Below, piece by piece: positions 8,802-56,863 of a stretch of 64,000 bases of DNA. The DNA is from Orbilia blumenaviensis (taxonomy: Eukaryota; Ascomycota; Orbiliomycetes; Orbiliales; Orbiliaceae). Position numbers and translations under genes: made by a program. The number at the start of each line of letters is the position of its first letter. The first letter of the stretch is position 1. A model generated the notes under the pieces. It saw only the letters and a program-made list of their open reading frames with translations, was not told where the DNA came from and ran no database searches. The stretch spans positions 620,001 to 684,000 of the forward strand of contig JAVHNS010000015.1 of assembly GCA_036872755.1 (NCBI GenBank), given 5' to 3'.

Positions 8802-10367
8802 ATGAATGACCCCACCGTGGAGGTCACGGCCCCAGATGATGGTGAAGATGCCCTCAACAAGGTTGCGCCGTCCTACATCGACTTCGACATCTTCCTCGAC
8901 TCCGAATTCTCACCCTATTCGTTCGCGAATACCCTAATACACGCTACGAATAATCTTTCAGATACGACGCTCGACCTGAGTACCCCTCTATCTCGGGTGC
9001 TCTTCGACCTCCAGGAAATTGATACCCACATCCACACCTTAACGACGTCGTCCGCCGAACCTCTCCTAACACACGCCAAAGTCTCACGCGATAACTCCAA
9101 GCTTTTGGTCGAGAGCATTCGCGAGCAGCTAACTCAGCTTTCCGCGTCATATGCACGTCTTTCGCGGGAAGTCCTAGACCGTCACGATGCTGCAAAGCCC
9201 CTGAATACCGTTGTTGAGAACTTGGCACGAACAACACGTTTGCTAAGAGGTTGTACGCGATGTCTCCTGCTCGGACGACAATTGGAGGTTCAATTATCAG
9301 AGGCTATCTCCACAGGAGCGGCGGATGATTCGCGAGGCCCTCGCCGGCCGCGAAAGGAGGACCCAAAAGCGCTGATACGTGCAGCATACACAATCGTCGA
9401 ACTACGACGAATGTATTCCAATGCTACCGGCGAAGCTCCCGGCCTAGAGACTCTGGATGTCATGAAAACGCTCTTAAATACAGTTATAACACCAGCGGAT
9501 CGAACCATCAAATCAAGGGCTCAGCAGACAATCAAAGAGTTCAGCTTTGCCTCATCCTCCTCAGCTTCGGCTCTCTCGTCGAGCGCAGACAAAGAACCTA
9601 CAACCTCGGAAACTCGTTCTCGGGCAACAGCTGCAATTTTAGTCCTCCATATCCTGTCTCCAACATCTTATACTCCAGCAGCGGGTGTAACCTCATCGTC
9701 AAACGCCAAAGCCCCGGCCAGTCTTCTAACATCAACTATAACCTCATACCTTCAGTCTCAACTGACAACCTCTCTCGCCTCGTTAAGCAGAAGCTTAACG
9801 ACTTTATCAACCCTCGACAGGACACTGACCGAAGTGTCTACTAGAGCAGCAAATATCGTGGCTCTCGAGAAGATCCTACAATCAATACCAGCCAATATTT
9901 CAACCAATCCATCACAACTAACATTTTCGACCCCTGCATTCGATCCAACTTCCGGATTAACGGATAATTCCAATACTGTAGACTCTTCAGACGAAGAGTC
10001 TGAGGATGGAACAGAAGGAGACAGACCCTCGGGAAACAAAAAGGAAGCCCAAGAGACCCTCTTAACTCCACTCCTCTCCTCCTTAGACACCCCATCCCTC
10101 ACAACCCACTTCTTTAGAACCCTAGCGTCAAATTTAGACCCCAGGGTTAGGGAAATCATGTCTAAGGGAGGGCTGGTGGCGAAGAATCTAAGGGATAGTA
10201 GGGATAAAGTTAGAAATGGACTGAGGGATTGCGTTATCCGTGGAGTCAACGCTGGCAATGCTGCTGGAAGTCCATCAAGTAGGTCAGGCGGTACCCATCA
10301 AGATGGAAAGGGGCTTGAGGGACTCGTAGGAATGATGTTTGGCGCTGTAGCAAGCTTGGGGAGATGA
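8802..10367 (+). CDS. COG5: Conserved oligomeric Golgi complex subunit 5 (521 aa)
   Basis: Single uninterrupted frame from ATG 8802. The N-terminal region matches the COG5 family: YIDFDIFLDSEFSP, then a stretch around residues 40-60 reading FANTLIHATNN and LDLSTPLSRVLFDLQEID, followed by long amphipathic helices (residues 60-180) typical of CATCHR tethering proteins. COG5 is a lobe B subunit of the octameric COG complex, which tethers retrograde vesicles at the Golgi and keeps glycosyltransferases in place. Length fits fungal orthologues. A Ser/Thr-rich low-complexity patch lies near residues 250-300, and an acidic patch (DSSDEESEDGTEGD) lies near 392-405. The C-terminus is Gly/Ser-rich, with a helix before it (DPRVREIMSKGG). 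No odd splice or break was seen. Confidence 0.85.
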   Translation: MNDPTVEVTAPDDGEDALNKVAPSYIDFDIFLDSEFSPYSFANTLIHATNNLSDTTLDLSTPLSRVLFDLQEIDTHIHTLTTSSAEPLLTHAKVSRDNSKLLVESIREQLTQLSASYARLSREVLDRHDAAKPLNTVVENLARTTRLLRGCTRCLLLGRQLEVQLSEAISTGAADDSRGPRRPRKEDPKALIRAAYTIVELRRMYSNATGEAPGLETLDVMKTLLNTVITPADRTIKSRAQQTIKEFSFASSSSASALSSSADKEPTTSETRSRATAAILVLHILSPTSYTPAAGVTSSSNAKAPASLLTSTITSYLQSQLTTSLASLSRSLTTLSTLDRTLTEVSTRAANIVALEKILQSIPANISTNPSQLTFSTPAFDPTSGLTDNSNTVDSSDEESEDGTEGDRPSGNKKEAQETLLTPLLSSLDTPSLTTHFFRTLASNLDPRVREIMSKGGLVAKNLRDSRDKVRNGLRDCVIRGVNAGNAAGSPSSRSGGTHQDGKGLEGLVGMMFGAVASLGR

Positions 10368-13678: not shown

Positions 13679-13826
13679 GGTCTTGTAGTTTAATTGGTAA
13701 AACACTGGGATGCTCGCTGGTTGATCACCAGTTGAGCGCTAGAAGCTATATTACTGGTATCCTATACTAGGAGCAATTATACTACTAACGTACCCAGAGA
13801 TGACTGTTCGAACCAGCCCTTGACCA
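13679..13826 (+). tRNA. tRNA-like gene or pseudogene with ~76-nt intron
   Basis: The locus folds as a tRNA. Acceptor GGTCTTG pairs with CTTGACC (5 of 7). The D stem is GTTT/AAAC around AATTGGTA. The anticodon stem CTGGG/CCCAG is perfect but separated by 83 nt, so an intron of about 76 nt would sit in the loop. The T arm is GACTG-TTCGAAC-CAGCC (4 of 5). Box A (TAGTTTAATTGG) and box B (GTTCGAACC) fit the Pol III consensus. If the intron follows position 37 the anticodon would be GCT, but position 37 is then C and the variable loop is too short for tRNA-Ser, so isotype is left open. The intron contains the hairpin CTGGT-TGATC-ACCAG. Two acceptor mismatches suggest a decaying copy. A mitochondrial-derived origin is possible from the D-arm style, yet the T-rich stop downstream argues for a nuclear Pol III unit. 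Confidence 0.4.
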
Positions 13827-46635: not shown

Positions 46636-47110
46636 TATGGCGCCTGAGAGGCAGATGTGGTGACAAGTTATTTAGAATTTTTGAATGATTAGTTGTCGAA
46701 GGAAAATAAAATAGAATGATAACTATGAATATGATAGTATTGTAATACACCTGGAAACAGGTTCTTAAAGCAACCCGGAAAACTTTCTGTGATATATAGA
46801 GTCTGTGATATTTTACTCAATTAATATCACCATAACATTCGGGGGCCGTCGTCATTCAGTGCTGTAGTACCGACGAGGAATGGGCTGTTGGCTATCCTGG
46901 TGAAGTATTCCCACCTGATCCATGGATTGGAGGCTGTATAATACGTTTACCAGTAAGTACAAGTACTTAAGCAGGTAGTTAGACGACATTTCCCTAATGA
47001 CCCTGGCAATGAATGGCTGGCCCTTTTATATGCGGCTAAGGATCTTTGTTTACCTAGGTATGTGGCAACGTCTTTGTGGTAACGTCTACCCTCAGCCACA
47101 GCAACCTAAG

Positions 47111-47260
47111 TATATAAACTAATTCACACCCCCCAAATACCTTTTTCTTCTTTCCTTCTCATCTTCACACCCCTAAAAAGTTTATTCATCAACTTCACCC
47201 TCCACCCCTAGCATCATCAGTCCCCTCTCCCCTCTTTTTAATCTTTATTACATAAATCGT
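47111..47260 (+). promoter_or_regulatory. TATA box and CT-rich leader of an unidentified transcript
   Basis: A perfect TATATAAA lies at 47111-47118, followed after about 20 bp by roughly 130 bp of C/T-rich sequence (CTTTTTCTTCTTTCC, CCCTCTCCCCTC). In filamentous fungi this pairing marks a strong Pol II promoter and start region. No long ORF follows; only short spliced ORFs and then the hairpin island lie downstream. Confidence 0.55.
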
Positions 47261-47776
47261 GACAAGGTATCACTCCATAATCTAAGATCCTTCTAGTCTC
47301 TCAGGTCCATCCTTGGAAATGAGGGAGCAACGGGATTTGGAAGGAGACGTGGATGTCCGGTGAGGTGATAAATACAATGATCTTGTAATCATCACTATCA
47401 TCATACCACACATCTATCACACAAGGCTATGTATATCCTCTTTCATTTACCATCATCACCAACCATCCCGTTCTTAATCTCAACTGCTACGGGCTATATG
47501 CTCCAAGCATTAGAGAGATACCGAGTGGACTGCGGCGAAGAATATTCTTCAGACGCGTAGTCCTTCGTGACAATTACCCTTCTGGGGACGCGTAACTGCT
47601 ACCTCCAATGCTGGGATTTCCCCTCCTCCCTCCCCGACTTTCATCAATTGGGTTCACACACGCACATATGTGTGCCACGGTCAGCCCCTATCCTCATCAT
47701 CATCATCATCCTCCATCCTGGAAACCATCTTTCGTGATGATTTCAGACTTCATCTTGTGTACTTTCGAGTGTACAG

Positions 47777-47973
47777 ATGATTTCTGGCGGCAACGGAAAA
47801 TCTACCCAGGAATCCAGTTTTGTGCTGGTAAGGGCCTTTCTTGGCTATAAGGATTCTCCTCTCATAGGTAAGTTTCCCAAATTTATATTCACTTCCGTAA
47901 TCTGGATGGGATATGACTCAAACGAAGCTAACCCTTCTTGTCATTTAAATAGTTCGTGCTACAGTCCTTTGAT
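47777..47973 (+). CDS. Possible 36-aa spliced micro-protein
   Basis: From ATG 47777 the frame MISGGNGKSTQESSFVLV then RAFLGYKDSPLI runs to a near-perfect donor (TAG|GTAAGT at 47868). An 85-bp intron with a GCTAAC branch and AATAG acceptor (47952) leads to VRATVL and a stop. The splice signals are good, and the reading frame is short. If the intron is retained, the same frame stays open to 48034 (85 aa, ending AFAPSVVSQRML). An overlapping frame (47608-47850) is also open, so the coding assignment is weak. I do not recognise the product. It could equally be the 5' part of a non-coding RNA running into the island. Confidence 0.25.
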
Positions 47974-50506
47974 ACATAGCTTTATAGCTGTGTTGGCATT
48001 CGCACCCTCGGTCGTGTCGCAAAGGATGTTATGAATTTTACGGGACCCTGGGTTCATATCCATGGGATAAGGTACGCGTGTAACATCAAGAGCGTGTAAC
48101 ATAGATATAACCTTGCTAATAACTGCTTTAATTTAGGAGAACGTCCACGCAACGCCTCAAAAGATTAACTACACCCCCCGCGGGGTAGTAGTATATGCCC
48201 TGCCAGAGGCATGATCGAGGTCATAGTTAGAGGTAGAGATAAGCCAGTCGCAAGGCGACTCGGCACTACCTATATGAGTGTCAAAATGCAAGGACCTCAC
48301 CTAGTGGCCCGGGGAAGAGCCCCGAGGCACTGACTATATGGAAACCCTACAGTGTAGGGGAGGAACCCATTTTTCCAGATGTCAATTCGCTCGCGACAAG
48401 CCACAAAACAACAGCACCAAAGCAATGACTGTTTGAGAGGCTCATACTCCATGTCCTCGAGCAATTTGCTCTTGAGTTGACTGGAGGAAGATGTCGATGC
48501 CCCTTCAGATCTCTTTTGAGGTATGAAGTAGGAAGCGTCACTCTTCAGATGACCCCTTCGGTCTTGGGAATTACCGCAGCTACTCGTCGAAATGGTTGGC
48601 GATAGATACCCCGTGTGCGAGAAACACCGAAAATACGGCGATGATGGGTTCGGCTGTAACAGCCGACCCATACCCCCCAACCACCACCAGAGACAATATG
48701 GACATGGGGCATTGGTACCTGCCCCTGTCCACGGCCCTAGCAATGTTGGACTGGAGTCCACATTGATCACGCAAGATGGGCCGGTTGAACTCTACGAATC
48801 CCCTTGTACAGAAGGGGAGGCGTAGGGCCACCGAAGAGCAAACTGCCCCCAAGAAAACCATTTGCGGGGGGGTTGCGGGATGGGCATTCATACGGAAAAA
48901 ACGGTATCACCAAGATACCAAACCTGGTCGGCCTATATGGCCACCAGGGGCCCGAGAAATGGGCCAACCTTTTGCGTCGGGGCCGTCTTCAAAGAAATGG
49001 CCACAATGACCTACCACTATCCCAGGACGAGAGGAGGTACAGAGATAATGTGGCCTGGCAATATCAAAAGCTAGCAGAGACAATCCTCAATGGTTATGAG
49101 CCCCCATAGCGAGGGCATTTAGCCCCGCTATGTCAAACCGGCGTTGGCCTCATGTCTGCGGGGCGCTGATAAGAAAAATGATACAATGGCATTGGGGGAT
49201 GGGGGGCATAAGTTCGAGACATGTGTGCGGGGAGGACCAAGATAGCAGTTCCTTCGAGGACGCATCTTAGGACCACCCGCGCCTGTCGAAGAACTCACCC
49301 CCCTCCCCCGGATGTGGTTTCTTCGGGCCGGCTTGGTGGTAGCCCCCGAAGCCAGCCCCCCTCCTTATCTCCCAAGCCTCTCAGGCTACCTCGGTCTCCA
49401 AACTCCTCAAGCCAATGAGGGTGGCCGGGTATCAGGGCAGGTCGTGTTGACGGGCTCGAAGGGGGGCCTGTCAGAGGCCTAGGGGGGAGCATCCCTTTTC
49501 GGAGGGTGCTCCCCAGCCATCAAATGGTCAGGGGATTGTCTCGCTGACCTCCCCCCGGGTGAGGGGGTCAGAGCCATATGCCAGGACGTCGCAGGGCAAT
49601 TGCCCGAGACATAGGCTGCCTAAACCCACGAGGGGAGGCGTCCTATGACCACCATGTGCGCCGGGTGCCAAATTATCGATACGACGCGGCATAGTGGGTC
49701 GTCCTGACAGGAAAACGCTGGTCTTGTCAAAAGTTTTTTGTGGTGGTACAGGCACCATGAGTGCCGCAGACAGGTTGGCTACGGCCACCTGTTACATCAA
49801 AAATCGATCTGCCAATTGGCAGTTGATGAAATGTGTACAGACGTCTGGAGAAGAGGTATTTACAAAACGCATGTCATTATTTTGATAAACATAACAGCTA
49901 ACGGTTTATTGGTTTTATATAGGCGGCATGTGCGTGAACCCAAACCGCTTTTTATGACCGTGGGACATAGATTGCGCAGTTCATGTTCGTTGGGGGGGTG
50001 CGAAGCCAAGTGGTCATCAGGTACATGTGCCCCTGCGCTTGCTCGATATATCTGTACCCAGCCCGGAAGAAATCCATTCGAATGACCATCTCGAATGAAA
50101 CATATCTCGGCTTGATATTGTGTGTATCCGGACTAGAAACCGAGGCCAGACAACCCTCCGGCGAAGCGACAATATCTTAGTATGCAAAGAAGGGTACTGT
50201 GTGCGGGATCAACCAACTCGCGAGTACATGGATCCTACAGTACGAATACTACATATGCGAACACGAATAACGGCGAGATTCGAATGGATCACGATCTCCC
50301 TTGATTGGGGAGTGGTGATACGCTACTACGATATCTGGTCCTCTGGGGGGTGGGATCCCCAGGACATGAGTTTACACCCTTTTCATCGGCCTCAAAGATG
50401 TGGTAGAATTTTTCCGTTATCAGATGACTGGTTCTGGCGCCCTTTTTTATACTACGGAATGATAGTGGCCTAGTTGGCAAACTATTATTATACTACATAC
50501 ATATAC

Positions 50507-50545
50507 ACTCCAACCAGCTGGGTAAAACCAGCTGGGACTAGGAGT
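50507..50545 (+). repeat. Hairpin element H, copy 1
   Basis: Outer stem ACTCC/GGAGT (5 bp), asymmetric internal loop AA versus GACTA, inner stem CCAGCTGG/CCAGCTGG (8 bp), terminal loop GTAAAA. It is preceded by TACTACATACATATAC and followed by AGG, features shared with copy 2. Confidence 0.75.
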
Positions 50546-50669
50546 AGGGGGACAGGAGCATCTTTGCAGACTACTGTTGAATGTGGGGGGGTTGTGGCCC
50601 AGCGCACTTTTCGACTGTGAGGATGCGGCATCGGCATCCGGTTCAACCCATGTGGTACTACATACTTAC

Positions 50670-50708
50670 ACTCCAACCAGCTGGTTTTGTCCGGCTGGGA
50701 TTAGGAGT
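50670..50708 (+). repeat. Hairpin element H, copy 2
   Basis: Same architecture as copy 1. Outer stem ACTCC/GGAGT, internal loop AA versus GATTA, inner stem CCAGCTGG/CCGGCTGG with one T-G pair (U.G in RNA), loop TTTTGT. Preceded by TACTACATACTTAC and followed by AGG. Confidence 0.75.
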
Positions 50709-50861
50709 AGGATGGAGGGGGGTAGCGGAGGGGTTGAACACTACCGCGGTAGTTAATTATGTATACCACTATCAACCCGAGTTCTTCATTATTATGAGGG
50801 AGGGCAGACAGAAGAGAAGATGTTCAATGCTCAGCCGCGGGGCGCAGAGAACCCTTTCCAG

Positions 50862-50942
50862 CCTTCGGACTGATGATCCGGGGCGTCATATGCCCAGCAA
50901 GACAAGCTCCCCTTCACGCCCTCGGGCTGACGACCCGGGGCG
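50862..50942 (+). repeat. Pair of CTGAYGA hairpins
   Basis: Two copies, at 50862-50885 and 50919-50942. Each is a 4-bp stem around a 7-base loop: CGGA-CTGATGA-TCCG and CGGG-CTGACGA-CCCG, both followed by GGGCG. The A-T pair closing the loop in the first is a G-C pair in the second. Confidence 0.65.
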
Positions 50943-51075
50943 TAACCCCCCTTTGAACATCTGTTCTCATGCGAAATCGATGGGGGGGTGGTCTGGGCGG
51001 CCGTGTACGGCCATCCCAGGGTCCCTACTGCAATGCATTTTTCATGTGCGTGCTGTGGGGTGATTACGTATAGAC

Positions 51076-51116
51076 ACCCCGACCAGTCGCTTTTTATAGC
51101 GGCTGGGATCAGGGGT
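51076..51116 (+). repeat. Hairpin element H, copy 3
   Basis: Same architecture with changed stems. The outer stem is now ACCCC/GGGGT (T-A became C-G), internal loop GA versus GATCA, inner stem CCAGTCGC/GCGGCTGG (four positions changed on each side, still 8 bp with one U.G), loop TTTTTATA. Followed by AGG. Confidence 0.7.
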
Positions 51117-51235
51117 AGGAATGAAAGACGAAATTGCAGTCATCATGTGGTGGTTGTGGTGGGATTGTTGCTACCACGAATCGCTGGAGATTGACTGGGG
51201 GGAGGGGGACAGTAGCAGATCCGGGTTCTCGAATG

Positions 51236-51259
51236 CCCCCCCCCCCCCCCCCCCCCCCC
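51236..51259 (+). repeat. C24 homopolymer
   Basis: Twenty-four consecutive C followed by GGGG. It is the longest G/C run of the window and may be prone to assembly error. Confidence 0.9.
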
Positions 51260-51969
51260 GGGGTTGGCCCAGGGGGTATTATACGCCACAATAATGATTA
51301 CAAGCAAGGCTGCAAGTTCTCCCACGAGCCGCCGTTGTCACATGGCTTTATTGCCACTAAAAAATCCAACAACTACATCTTTTATGAAAGTCAAAAGCGA
51401 GGGGCCACATGGACGGTGCCACCACCGAGCCTGAGCCCATTGTTTGGGGCCAGGCTGTAAAATCCTACGAACGGATCGGTTACCATCGATATCCCACCGG
51501 CATGTGCTGGGGGGTAAGAAGTCTTTAGATTTTTAGCCAGCCAAAGGCGAAGGACTTTCTGAAGAGCCCTCGGTGGATGGTATGATGAACGAAGACGACA
51601 TAATTGATGTCGTGGTGTGGGGGATGGGGGCCTTACGATGTACCAATTGGTATATCGGGGCCCCCTCCCCTGAGGCGGGGCGTAGCTTTTCCCCTTGTGG
51701 GACTAGCATGCCCCAGGGAATCCATTGGGGTCCGCAAATTCGTCGACCTCATGAGGCCGTCGCGGGGCGAGAGTACAGTCACAGCTACAACTGCGGCCGA
51801 GAATACCGCCAACCGTTAAAGTGGGGGCGGTAACTACTATCCACAATACCACCGGTCAGGATGTGGGTGCGGCAGACGAATATATCGTCATGTACGATGT
51901 TTGCCCTGCGCTACCTCCTGCTGCTGTTGAATATCTTTGTTGGCGGCATACATCGAGGATATCGCTCCG

Positions 51970-52355
51970 ACAGCCCCCTTATGTAGTCGCAATTGCGGTT
52001 TACATAAGGCTGTGGGGCTGGGGGATGGGATGGGTAAGACGAACAGAGGATGGATTCGATATGGGGTGGGGTAGGGCGCGCGGAGGAAATAATTTAGCAA
52101 GGTCGCCCCTACGGCCTTGTAGTAACCGCAATTGCGGTTTGCCCGGGCCGAGGGGCCGAGGGGCTGGGAGGGGGGTAATATGGCCGAGCAGGAAAACAGA
52201 CGGCCTGTGGGGGGGGTGGGGCTGGAGCCCTGAACGATGAGATTCAGGGTGAGGGTGTGGGAAGGAAGGGAATCTTGATGGAGTTGCCCCTACGGCTCTT
52301 TGGTGACCGCAATTGCGGTTTGCCTGGGCCGGGGGGCTTGGGGGGGTGGAGGATG
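51970..52355 (+). repeat. Three diverged repeats with a CGCAATTGCG core
   Basis: Copies centre on 51988-51997, 52125-52138 and 52306-52319. The first has 13-bp arms (TTATGTA/TACATAA plus ACAGCC/GGCTGT). The second and third share the core ACCGCAATTGCGGT, flanking stems CCCCT-A-CGGCY pairing with GGCCG-RGGGG, and downstream ATGGCCGAGCAGGAAAA, and are about 180 bp apart. Arms differ between copies but remain paired, with U.G wobbles in copy 3. Confidence 0.7.
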
Positions 52356-52450
52356 GCCGAGCAGGAAAATAAACCACCTATGGGGGTGGGGGGCTTGAAC
52401 GAAGAAATTCAAAATGAGGGTTGTGGGGTGTGGGTTATATTGATTTTTTT

Positions 52451-54460: not shown

Positions 54461-56863
54461 ATGGCCAGTACACGAACATCAGCTCGTGGCGCCAAGCGAG
54501 GTGCTTCGACCACAAACACCACCACCACAGCCGCAGCAATTCGAAAGCGCAAGACCACCGAAGGGTCTGGAGATGGCGTCTCCAAATCAAAGCCGAAGCC
54601 AAAGACACCCACCAAGCCTGCCGCCGCCGCAGCTGGACCGGGTCGTCGCGGCCGTCCTCCCAAGGGCGCCGTTGACGCAGCACCTGTCGCAGCACCCGCA
54701 GCAGCAGCAAAAAAGACAACAAGGCCAGCACCAGCTACCAAGGCATCGACCAGAGCAACCGGCGCAACTGTAGCATCTGCGGCAAAGAAGCGTGGGAGGC
54801 CTCCCAAGGTCACCCAGAGTGATATCATCGCTAACGCGGTGAAAGCGGCCGAAGAATCTGCAGCCACTCAGGGCGGGCCGGCGACCTCGGCTAGTAAACG
54901 AGGTCCGAAGCCGAAGAAGATCTTTGAGGAGGCACCAGCACCACCAAAGCGTGGCAGGCAGGCTAAGCCTGCAGAGGAGGTTCCCGCTCCCGTTTCCGCT
55001 CCCGCTCCTGCTCCCGCCCCCAAGAGAGGAAGACAGGCAAAGAAGACCGAGGAGCCGCCAGCTGCCCCGGCACCGAGGAAAGGACGGCCTCCAAAGGCAG
55101 TTGAGGAAGCTCCGGCTCCTCCTGCCAAAAGGGGCCGCCAATCCAAGGTGGTCGAGGCGGCGCCGGCTCCTGCTGGTCGAGGGAGGGGGGCAAAGAAGGC
55201 CGAGGAGAAGAAGGAAGAGGAGGAGGCGCCGGCGGAGCAGCCGAAGAAAACACGAAAGAGAAAGGCTGCCGAGCAGGAGGAGGACGAGGAGGAGGGGTCC
55301 GCGGTCGCGGCCTTCGAGAAGACGCCTCGCAAGCGTCAATCGAGGGCTGCGGCCAAGGACGAGGAGGAGGAGGATGAGGAGGAACAGCCAGAGCCGGCCA
55401 AAACCCCAGCGAAGACACCAGCCAAGGCTCCGGCGAAGACCCCCGCCAAAACCCCGGCCAGGAGCGCCGCAAAGACTCCAGCAAAGTCGGCGGCCAAGAC
55501 ACCAGCGAAGACCCCGGCCAAGTCGACCGCAAAGACCCCGGCGAAGACTCCGGCGAAGGCAGCTGCGAAGACACCTGCCAGGGCGGCAAAGACGCCCGCC
55601 AAACCCTCCCAGGCCGCCGAAACTGCCACTATCAGTGGCAAGCGCAAGGCCGCAGATCTAGAGTTAGATCTTGCGGCCGAGGGGCCGGAGCCAAAGGTCG
55701 AGCCGGAGCCGACCCCCATCACATCCCGCCCACCTCCACCTGCCACCCCTCCACCAAAGCCGCAGACCCCAAAGCAGACCCCAAGGTCTGCCAAGCGCCC
55801 TGCCACAGCTCCAAAGCAGGCCACGCCAAAGCAAAAGATCACACCATCGAAGCGTGCTAGAACCGAAGAACGTGATCTCTCGGCCAAAGGGCCAACCCCA
55901 TCTAAGCGTGCCAAAACTGAGGAGCGACAGCTCGAGGCGGGTCCGTCGGCGACTGCTTCTGACTCGACACCAATTCTTGAAAAGGGACTGGCCTGGTTTT
56001 TCACCCGTCCAAAGGTCACACTCGATGGTCCAGCTGAATCCATCGATGACATGCAGCGTAGTTACATGGTCTTGAAGCCCATCTCATCTCATCTTACGAA
56101 TGGCTCGTCGTCGTCGTCGGCTCCTATCGCCAAAGATGGAAATCTCCGCGTCATCGACATCCCCAAGAAGAAGTTTCTAGGAAAGGGCGGCAGACTGCTG
56201 ACATTCGTCAAATCGTCCAATGCTTCTCTCTCATCTGTCAAGGATATTCTTTCGTCCGAGACATACAGCACCAAGACCATGGGAGAACGCACCAATCCTA
56301 CAGCTCAACCCATCGCATCCGCTGTTTATGCTATCAGCCAGAGCAAGGGAAATACACCAAGCCAGGACACAACCCATTTCAGCTACATCACTATCAAGGC
56401 CAAGGGAGATGAAGAGTTGACAGAAGTTCAGAAGGAGTTTGGATTGGCTGATAAGGGCGGATTCGTCGTCAATGTCCGAAATCCCAAGTTTAAGGGACCA
56501 GCCGGCGCTAGTATTGGCAGTGAGCCGGAGTTTAGTGATGAGTAAGTTCTAAATCAGTCGAAAAACAAAAAAATAAGGATTGTGGGAGCTCAGTTTGCTA
56601 ATATGAAATATAGAATCACATCGTCGTTCGGAGATTATCGTTGGTTGGCTATGGATCCTAAGCATTTGGAATACGCCGGTGCGGAGCTATTATTTGTTGG
56701 AGAGAAGGGTGATGCTACTCCAGAAGAGCTGGTTGAGCTCGCAGAGGAAGACGAGACTCGTATTAATGAGATCAGTGGTGGCAAGCACGATGATGGTGTA
56801 TTTGCGGATTTGGAGCTGCGCAAGGGAGAGTGGGGAGACGAGATGCTCGTTAGCTGGGATTAA
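54461..56863 (+). CDS. AT-hook / histone-H1-like chromatin protein (776 aa)
   Basis: Exons 54461-56541 and 56614-56863, with a 72-bp intron; the phase joins. The N-terminal two thirds are disordered and very basic, rich in Ala, Pro and Lys. They carry at least seven AT-hook-like cores (GRRGRPPKG, KRGRPPKV, KRGRQAK twice, RKGRPPK, KRGRQSK, GRGRGAK). Residues about 310-385 are a tandem array of TPAK units (AKTPAKTPAKAPAK) like histone H1 tails, each a potential Cdk site. The globular C-terminal part (VYAISQSKG... FSYITIKAKGDEEL, RWLAMDPKHLEYAGAELLFV) matches a conserved ascomycete domain often annotated loosely as a BTB-type transcription factor; I saw no BTB fold signature. A nuclear DNA-binding role is likely, but the precise function is unknown. 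Strong codon bias makes shadow frames open on both strands. Confidence 0.8.

What the first reader, a model, noticed from the sequence alone, without database searches (positions are those of the whole stretch)
50507..51116. Three copies of one hairpin with compensatory stem changes
Copies at 50507-50545, 50670-50708 and 51076-51116 share outer stem, 2-by-5 internal loop (AA/GA against GANYA), 8-bp inner stem, loop, and trailing AGG. The outer stem changes T-A to C-G on both sides (ACTCC/GGAGT to ACCCC/GGGGT). The inner stem changes four bases on each side (CCAGCTGG/CCAGCTGG to CCAGTCGC/GCGGCTGG) and still pairs, using U.G wobbles that exist only in plus-strand RNA. This is the pattern expected when structure, not sequence, is selected. 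The conserved asymmetric internal loop may be a binding site.
Basis: partly seen in the sequence, partly recalled or inferred. Interest (0 to 1): 0.85.

Follow-up and report, generated by a model that had tools for sequence, protein, structure and literature searches.

The report
Repeated hairpin in fungal structured RNA
Three copies of one RNA hairpin lie inside an unusually hairpin-rich, non-protein-coding stretch of a fungus related to nematode-trapping Arthrobotrys, probably a long non-coding RNA gene of unknown job, though part of its neat pairing may come from a copying error and not from selection.

Summary
The three hairpins are real and at the stated places; all 13 stem pairs form in each copy. 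Two more duplicated hairpin families lie in it (50.86-50.94, 51.97-52.34 kb). A TATA box, a pyrimidine tract and one strict intron suggest a plus-strand Pol II transcript; the five wobbles in the stems compared exist only in plus-strand RNA. Best reading: a lineage-specific structured lncRNA with repeated protein-binding hairpins. Against: covariation of three copies is not significant (114 of 500 shuffles reach it); the loop of copy 1 is inverted relative to copies 2 and 3, a footprint of template switching, which can make compensatory changes without selection; locus-wide strand evidence is weak; one of 42 control blocks is as hairpin-rich; no relative of the locus could be examined. Transcription, protein binding and function are inferred.

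The parts
50507..50545 (+). hairpin A copy 1 (apical loop inverted relative to copies 2 and 3)
50670..50708 (+). hairpin A copy 2
51076..51116 (+). hairpin A copy 3 (one extra inner pair)
50491..50506 (+). 5' leader TACTACATAC.. of copy 1, shared with copy 2 (50656-50669)
50861..50884 (+). hairpin B copy 1: GCCU-U-CGGA / UCCG-GGGC with bulged U and loop CUGAUGA
   Evidence: not stable on its own (z -0.46)
50918..50941 (+). hairpin B copy 2: GCCC-U-CGGG / CCCG-GGGC, same bulge, loop CUGACGA
   Evidence: z -2.65 on plus, minus strand folds better
51970..52020 (+). hairpin D copy 1, apex CGCAATTGCGGTTT
52102..52160 (+). hairpin D copy 2
52283..52342 (+). hairpin D copy 3
47111..47250 (+). TATATAAA at 47111-47118 and a pyrimidine-rich tract (64-82% C+T per 50 nt over 47125-47249): inferred core promoter and start region
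   Evidence: inference
47868..47952 (+). predicted intron GTAAGT..CTAAC..TAG, 85 nt; the only strict match in the window on either strand
   Evidence: 6 of 400 shuffles of the locus hold one
47100..52440 (+). whole inferred non-coding transcription unit, hairpin-dense; AATAAA at 52368; ends approximate

Best explanation
The three hairpins are a repeated module of a single-copy, plus-strand, Pol II-type long non-coding RNA gene (about 47.1-52.4 kb) in a fungus of the Arthrobotrys/Orbilia group. The RNA is built of many local hairpins, several of them duplicated within the gene. In module A the part held fixed is the lower half: outer stem, 2-by-5 asymmetric internal loop, proximal inner stem and 3' AGG. 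The distal inner stem and the apical loop change freely, even by inversion. The likeliest mechanism is that the internal loop with its two flanking helices is a recognition site for one RNA-binding protein, and that the RNA offers it in three copies, working as a multivalent scaffold. Shown: sequences, pairing, single-locus confinement within the mismatch limits searched, hairpin density, lack of coding signal. Inferred: transcription, strand, protein binding, scaffold role. Stem upkeep probably used both template-switch mutation and selection on plus-strand RNA.
For: 13 of 13 pairs in 3 of 3 copies and the random-placement test; folding z -3.6 to -5.4. Plus-strand wobbles in the stems compared: A two, B one, D two (copies 2 and 3 of D only), with every pair in those stems standard on the plus strand. 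Changes in the internal loop of A are transitions only, while the apical loop turned over. Locus mean folding z on the plus strand -1.26 (64 windows) against -0.15 (735 windows elsewhere in the window; p 2e-9) and -0.18 (870 windows, 131 kb elsewhere in the genome). Single copy. Best codon score in the locus 7.6, like a control stretch (8.6) and below the methyltransferase gene (29.2) and the gene at 54-57 kb (171.7), neither of which was used for training. One strict intron, TATA, pyrimidine tract, AATAAA. No Pfam family above its cut-off in the 6 locus ORFs tried, no protein relative at E 0.1 for 2 ORFs.
Against: No expression data; no orthologous DNA. Strand evidence over the whole locus is weak: paired z difference -0.25 (p 0.008), the minus strand also folds well (z -1.01), a symmetric stem scan gives GU 93 against AC 85, and local folds with z of -4 or below number 12 on each strand. 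TATAAA and AATAAA also occur on the minus strand of the locus (6 and 4 times), and one loose intron lies on the minus strand. Covariation of three copies is not significant. Of 42 control blocks of about 3 kb, two are hairpin-rich (-1.25 and -0.91; the best locus block is -1.25): one is by eye a coding gene with internal repeats, the other an intergenic stretch. Hairpin B copy 1 is not stable alone and B copy 2 folds better on the minus strand. No member of family A outside this locus was found.
Confidence: 0.45

Rival explanations
1. Mutational origin: the hairpins are made and kept paired by template switching during replication in a neutral or weakly constrained intergenic stretch; compensatory changes and loop inversions come from the mutation process and no RNA function is needed.
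For: The apical loop of copy 1 is inverted relative to copies 2 and 3 (the model also matches the inner hairpin of copy 1 on the minus strand, 19.4 bits). [quoted passage not shown] Hairpin richness is on both strands; one control intergenic stretch is also rich.
Against: Template switching yields perfect Watson-Crick arms; copies 2 and 3 carry plus-strand wobbles. It does not explain why the asymmetric internal loop, outer stem and AGG are kept in three copies while the sequence around them is unalike. 5 plus-strand wobbles and no unpaired cell in the stems compared (small numbers).
Confidence: 0.3
2. Small-RNA source: the hairpins are Dicer substrates of a hairpin/milRNA locus.
For: One long near-perfect hairpin at 51615-51677 (z -7.2) and many stable hairpins.
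Against: Hairpin A (39-41 nt, 13-14 pairs with an internal loop) is short for a Dicer precursor (general knowledge); Rfam miRNA matches are far below their gathering scores.
Confidence: 0.08
3. DNA-level element: palindromes that act as protein-binding or replication elements in double-stranded DNA.
For: CCAGCTGG and CCGCAATTGCGG are themselves palindromic; both strands fold.
Against: Motifs confined to one locus within the mismatch limits searched; plus-strand-only wobbles; the asymmetric internal loop has no obvious meaning in duplex DNA.
Confidence: 0.09
4. Remnant of an integrated RNA virus or viroid-like element with a compact structured genome.
For: About 5 kb, structured, G-rich, different in composition from the adjoining blocks.
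Against: No Pfam or protein relative in the ORFs tried, no Rfam ribozyme, single copy, host-type promoter and intron signals.
Confidence: 0.04

Closest known systems
Drosophila roX lncRNAs (stem-loops bound by the helicase MLE)
   Same: Long non-coding RNA in which a stem-loop is bound by double-stranded-RNA-binding domains with shape and sequence specificity (PMC6451107, abstract read); the repeated roX box is recalled.
   Different: No shared sequence tested; partner protein, expression and chromatin role unknown here; different kingdom.
HAX1 lncRNA of Trichoderma reesei
   Same: A filamentous-ascomycete lncRNA that acts on a protein, the transactivator Xyr1 (PMC6948969: start of abstract, passages).
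   Different: Its longest version is named HAX1-428 (taken here as 428 nt), far shorter; the words hairpin and stem do not occur in the main text.
Conserved fungal intergenic structural RNAs (17 found in 2021)
   Same: Intergenic and untranslated structured RNAs, many in Pezizomycotina (PMC8216456, passages).
   Different: Their average lengths are 48-343 nt and they are found across tens to hundreds of genomes; this is a multi-kilobase locus with one species in hand; Orbilia and Arthrobotrys do not occur in that main text.
Template-switch-maintained hairpins in rRNA and microRNA genes
   Same: Loop inversion and multiple compensatory changes in one stem (PMC8794818, start of abstract and passages).
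   Different: Here seen between paralogous modules in one locus, not along a species tree.

Membership tests
Any Rfam family | score at or above the gathering threshold | tested here: not met
   No family in the locus; 9 weak matches up to E 5, all far below gathering scores
H/ACA snoRNA | H box ANANNA and ACA box at fixed distance after guide hairpins | tested here: not met
   By eye: after the hairpins come AGGGGGACAGGA, AGGATGGAGGGG, AGGAATGAAAGA; an ACA follows copy 1 only, no H box; no Rfam match. Box rules recalled.
Kink-turn | 3-nt bulge followed by tandem sheared G-A/A-G pairs | tested here: not met
   By eye: the 5-nt strand reads GAYYA, so its last two bases are not GA; the 2-nt strand is AA, AA, GA. 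Rule recalled.
Telomerase RNA | template complementary to about 1.5 telomere repeats; Rfam telomerase models | tested here: not met
   Only one CTAACCC on the plus strand, at 47928, inside the predicted intron at its branch site; no Rfam match
roX-like lncRNA with repeated protein-binding stem-loops | several copies of one stem-loop in one RNA | tested here: met
   3 copies of A, 2 of B, 3 of D within 1.9 kb of DNA; that they share one RNA is inferred
roX-like lncRNA with repeated protein-binding stem-loops | transcribed RNA bound by a specific protein | not testable with these tools
   no expression or binding data
lncRNA gene | no coding potential | tested here: met
   best codon score 7.6, like a control stretch (8.6) and below two untrained genes (29.2, 171.7); no Pfam in the 6 ORFs tried
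lncRNA gene | Pol II transcript, spliced or polyadenylated | tested here: inconclusive
   signals only: TATA, pyrimidine tract, one strict intron, AATAAA; the short hexamers occur on the minus strand too
template-switch-shaped hairpin | loop inversion with conserved arms | tested here: met
   copy 1 loop: reverse complement matches 4/6 and 5/6, forward 1/6 and 2/6

The most novel reading that the evidence does not exclude
A lineage-specific, spliced, about 5-kb architectural RNA of nematode-trapping fungi, assembled from several families of internally duplicated hairpin modules that grow and are repaired by template switching and are then held by selection at their internal-loop protein sites: a fungal counterpart of roX or Xist repeat RNAs, with the birth process of the modules readable in one gene.
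Probability: 0.25. Interest if true: 0.72.

Novelty: new member of a known kind. Interest (0 to 1): 0.42.

Why it matters
A 2025 review of fungal lncRNAs does not use the words hairpin or stem-loop in its main text (PMC12566771, word counts and two passages), and three searches for non-coding RNA work in Arthrobotrys/Orbilia gave no description of a structured lncRNA (open-access library only, listings seen). The A. oligospora genome paper predicted its other non-coding RNAs by Rfam search (PMC3164635, passages), which would miss this locus. If the locus is expressed and conserved, it gives a defined repeated hairpin to use as bait for a binding protein. Its copies also show a loop inversion beside wobble-type change, so they could separate mutational from selective causes of compensatory change once orthologues are aligned.

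Tried and rejected
Rfam at gathering and relaxed thresholds: nothing in the locus. Pfam on 6 ORFs of the locus out of several dozen stop-to-stop frames of 70 aa or more: one match at E 0.14, below its cut-off, otherwise none. Protein relatives of two locus ORFs: none at E 0.1. Hairpin pattern in viral contigs: 1 hit, inside a GGGACCAGGGCTGGGAC-like repeat without the 5' outer arm by eye, judged chance; in prokaryote genome contigs: none. Symmetric GU/AC stem scan over the whole locus: no strand bias. G-run pattern genome-wide: 771 matches, those listed mostly homopolymers, uninformative. Leader pattern: 71 matches against 81 for the control, so no genome-wide family. Pattern for hairpin B: 5 matches within 3 mismatches, 2 of them the locus copies (0 and 1 mismatches), 3 elsewhere at 3 mismatches; control 2. 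Pattern for hairpin D: my GT was set one base off, so the three copies show as 2 mismatches; of 26 places (control 22) only these three hold CGCAATTGCGGTTT exactly. Hammerhead ribozyme for the CUGAUGA loop of B: no GAAA partner by eye. Sigma-type promoter scan: not meaningful for a fungus. Literature searches: no description of this locus seen in the listings; only the held open-access library was searched.

Full report
What was checked. The window is G000:C15:620001-684000 of a 42.5-Mb, 23-contig genome. The COG5 protein encoded at 8802-10367 is 91% identical to that of Arthrobotrys conoides, 88-90% to five other Arthrobotrys/Orbilia species and 77-85% to further Orbiliaceae, so the host is an orbiliaceous, probably nematode-trapping, ascomycete. 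The three hairpins lie exactly where stated. Each has 5 outer pairs, a 2-by-5 internal loop, an inner stem, and AGG after the outer stem; 13 of 13 pairs form in each copy. Isolated folding gives -22.9, -21.3 and -25.4 kcal/mol with z -4.9, -3.6 and -5.4.

How the copies differ. Copies 1 and 2 differ at one stem base, giving a U-G wobble in copy 2. Copies 1 and 3 differ at 7 stem bases: the outer T-A becomes C-G (two), and the inner stem differs at 3 bases in the 5' arm and 2 in the 3' arm; the fold of copy 3 has one extra inner pair, so that all three loops are 6 nt. If as many changes, with the same numbers of transitions and transversions, are placed at random, all 13 pairs survive in 943 of 400000 trials (copies 1-3) and 1579 of 400000 (copies 2-3); for copies 1-2, with one change, in 200088 of 400000. 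This speaks against independent neutral change, but not against correlated mutation. The formal covariation measure on three sequences is not significant (114 of 500 shuffles reach it; 12 of 13 pairs counted, 2 with a change on both sides). The two wobbles are mismatches on the minus strand.

A footprint of template switching. The loop of copy 1, GTAAAA, matches copies 2 and 3 (TTTTGT, TTTTAT) at 1 and 2 of 6 places as written, but at 4 and 5 of 6 as its reverse complement. The covariance model also matches the inner hairpin of copy 1 on the minus strand (19.4 bits). Inverted loops and multiple compensatory changes are marks of template-switch mutation in PMC8794818 (start of abstract and passages). 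Part of the perfect pairing can therefore be mutational. The wobbles, the conserved asymmetric internal loop and the conserved 3' AGG are not explained by it.

The larger object. Dinucleotide-shuffle folding scores show one multi-kilobase outlier in the window, at 47-52 kb; a single further 1-kb bin at 55 kb, in the repeat-rich coding gene, is as low on the plus strand. The locus mean z is -1.26 (plus) and -1.01 (minus) in 64 windows, against -0.15 and -0.10 in the other 735, and -0.18 and -0.17 in 870 windows from 131 kb elsewhere in the genome. Two of 42 control blocks of about 3 kb reach -1.25 and -0.91, while the best 3-kb block of the locus is -1.25: the first looks by eye like a coding gene with internal repeats, the second like an intergenic stretch. 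Hairpin density alone is therefore not unique. The locus is richer in G+C than the adjoining 2-kb blocks (0.53 against 0.43) and in runs of five or more G (5.0 per kb, against 0.4 to its left and 1.7 to its right). It has no coding signal (best codon score 7.6), no Pfam above cut-off in the 6 ORFs tried, no Rfam and no second copy.

Other modules. Hairpin B (two copies, bulged U, loop CUGAYGA) has one A-U to G-C double change and one U-G against C-G. Hairpin D (three copies, apex CGCAATTGCGGTTT) has two plus-strand wobbles in the lower stem of its third copy and a different lower stem in its first. Neither was found elsewhere within the limits searched. Over the three families the compared stems hold five plus-strand wobbles and no unpaired cell. 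Against this, a scan of all stems shows no clear GU excess (93 GU, 85 AC), local folds with z of -4 or below number 12 on each strand, hairpin B copy 1 is not stable alone (z -0.46) and B copy 2 folds better on the minus strand (-22.7 against -18.8 kcal/mol).

Signals of a gene. On the plus strand there is TATATAAA at 47111, a pyrimidine-rich tract at 47125-47249, one strict intron at 47868-47952 (the only such match in the whole window on either strand; 6 of 400 shuffles of the locus hold one on this strand), a weaker intron at 48072-48136, and AATAAA at 52368. TATAAA and AATAAA also occur on the minus strand of the locus, with one loose intron there. Together these make an independent plus-strand Pol II unit likely, not certain.

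Mechanism. In module A the lower half is fixed and the apex free, even to inversion. A protein that reads the asymmetric internal loop and its two flanking helices fits this; three copies in 0.6 kb suggest multivalent binding. This is inference. The nearest things it works like are the roX stem-loops bound by MLE (PMC6451107, abstract) and, among fungi, HAX1, which acts on Xyr1 (PMC6948969, start of abstract and passages). It is not shown to be a member of either. The known conserved fungal structural RNAs (PMC8216456, passages) are much shorter and widely conserved.

Verdict. A real repeated module in a probable lncRNA gene; function open; interest moderate because transcription, conservation and binding could not be tested.

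Noticed in passing
window 51615-51677: Near-perfect long hairpin in the locus (z -7.2 on plus, -7.0 for the overlapping minus fold), looks like a small-RNA precursor.
   Followed up: no
window 51236-51259: Run of 24 C in the locus; homopolymer G/C tracts are frequent among the genome matches listed.
   Followed up: no
window 13679-13826: Rfam tRNA match spanning 148 nt, presumably intron-containing; ARAGORN as run found no tRNA.
   Followed up: no
window 48170-48192: UACACCCC..GGGGUAGUAGU hairpin resembling only the outer stem of module A (14.3 bits, E 0.0085 without filters).
   Followed up: partly
L035 3300-6600: Intergenic-looking control stretch that is also hairpin-rich (mean z -0.91); such loci may be a class in this genome.
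   Followed up: partly
L034 7900-8300: Apparent coding gene with repeated GCGAGCAATTGGCACCCCCTGCTCGC-like units that fold well.
   Followed up: no
window 54461-56545: Alanine/lysine/proline-rich ORF of 694 aa with AT-hook-like RGRPPK repeats and no Pfam family.
   Followed up: no
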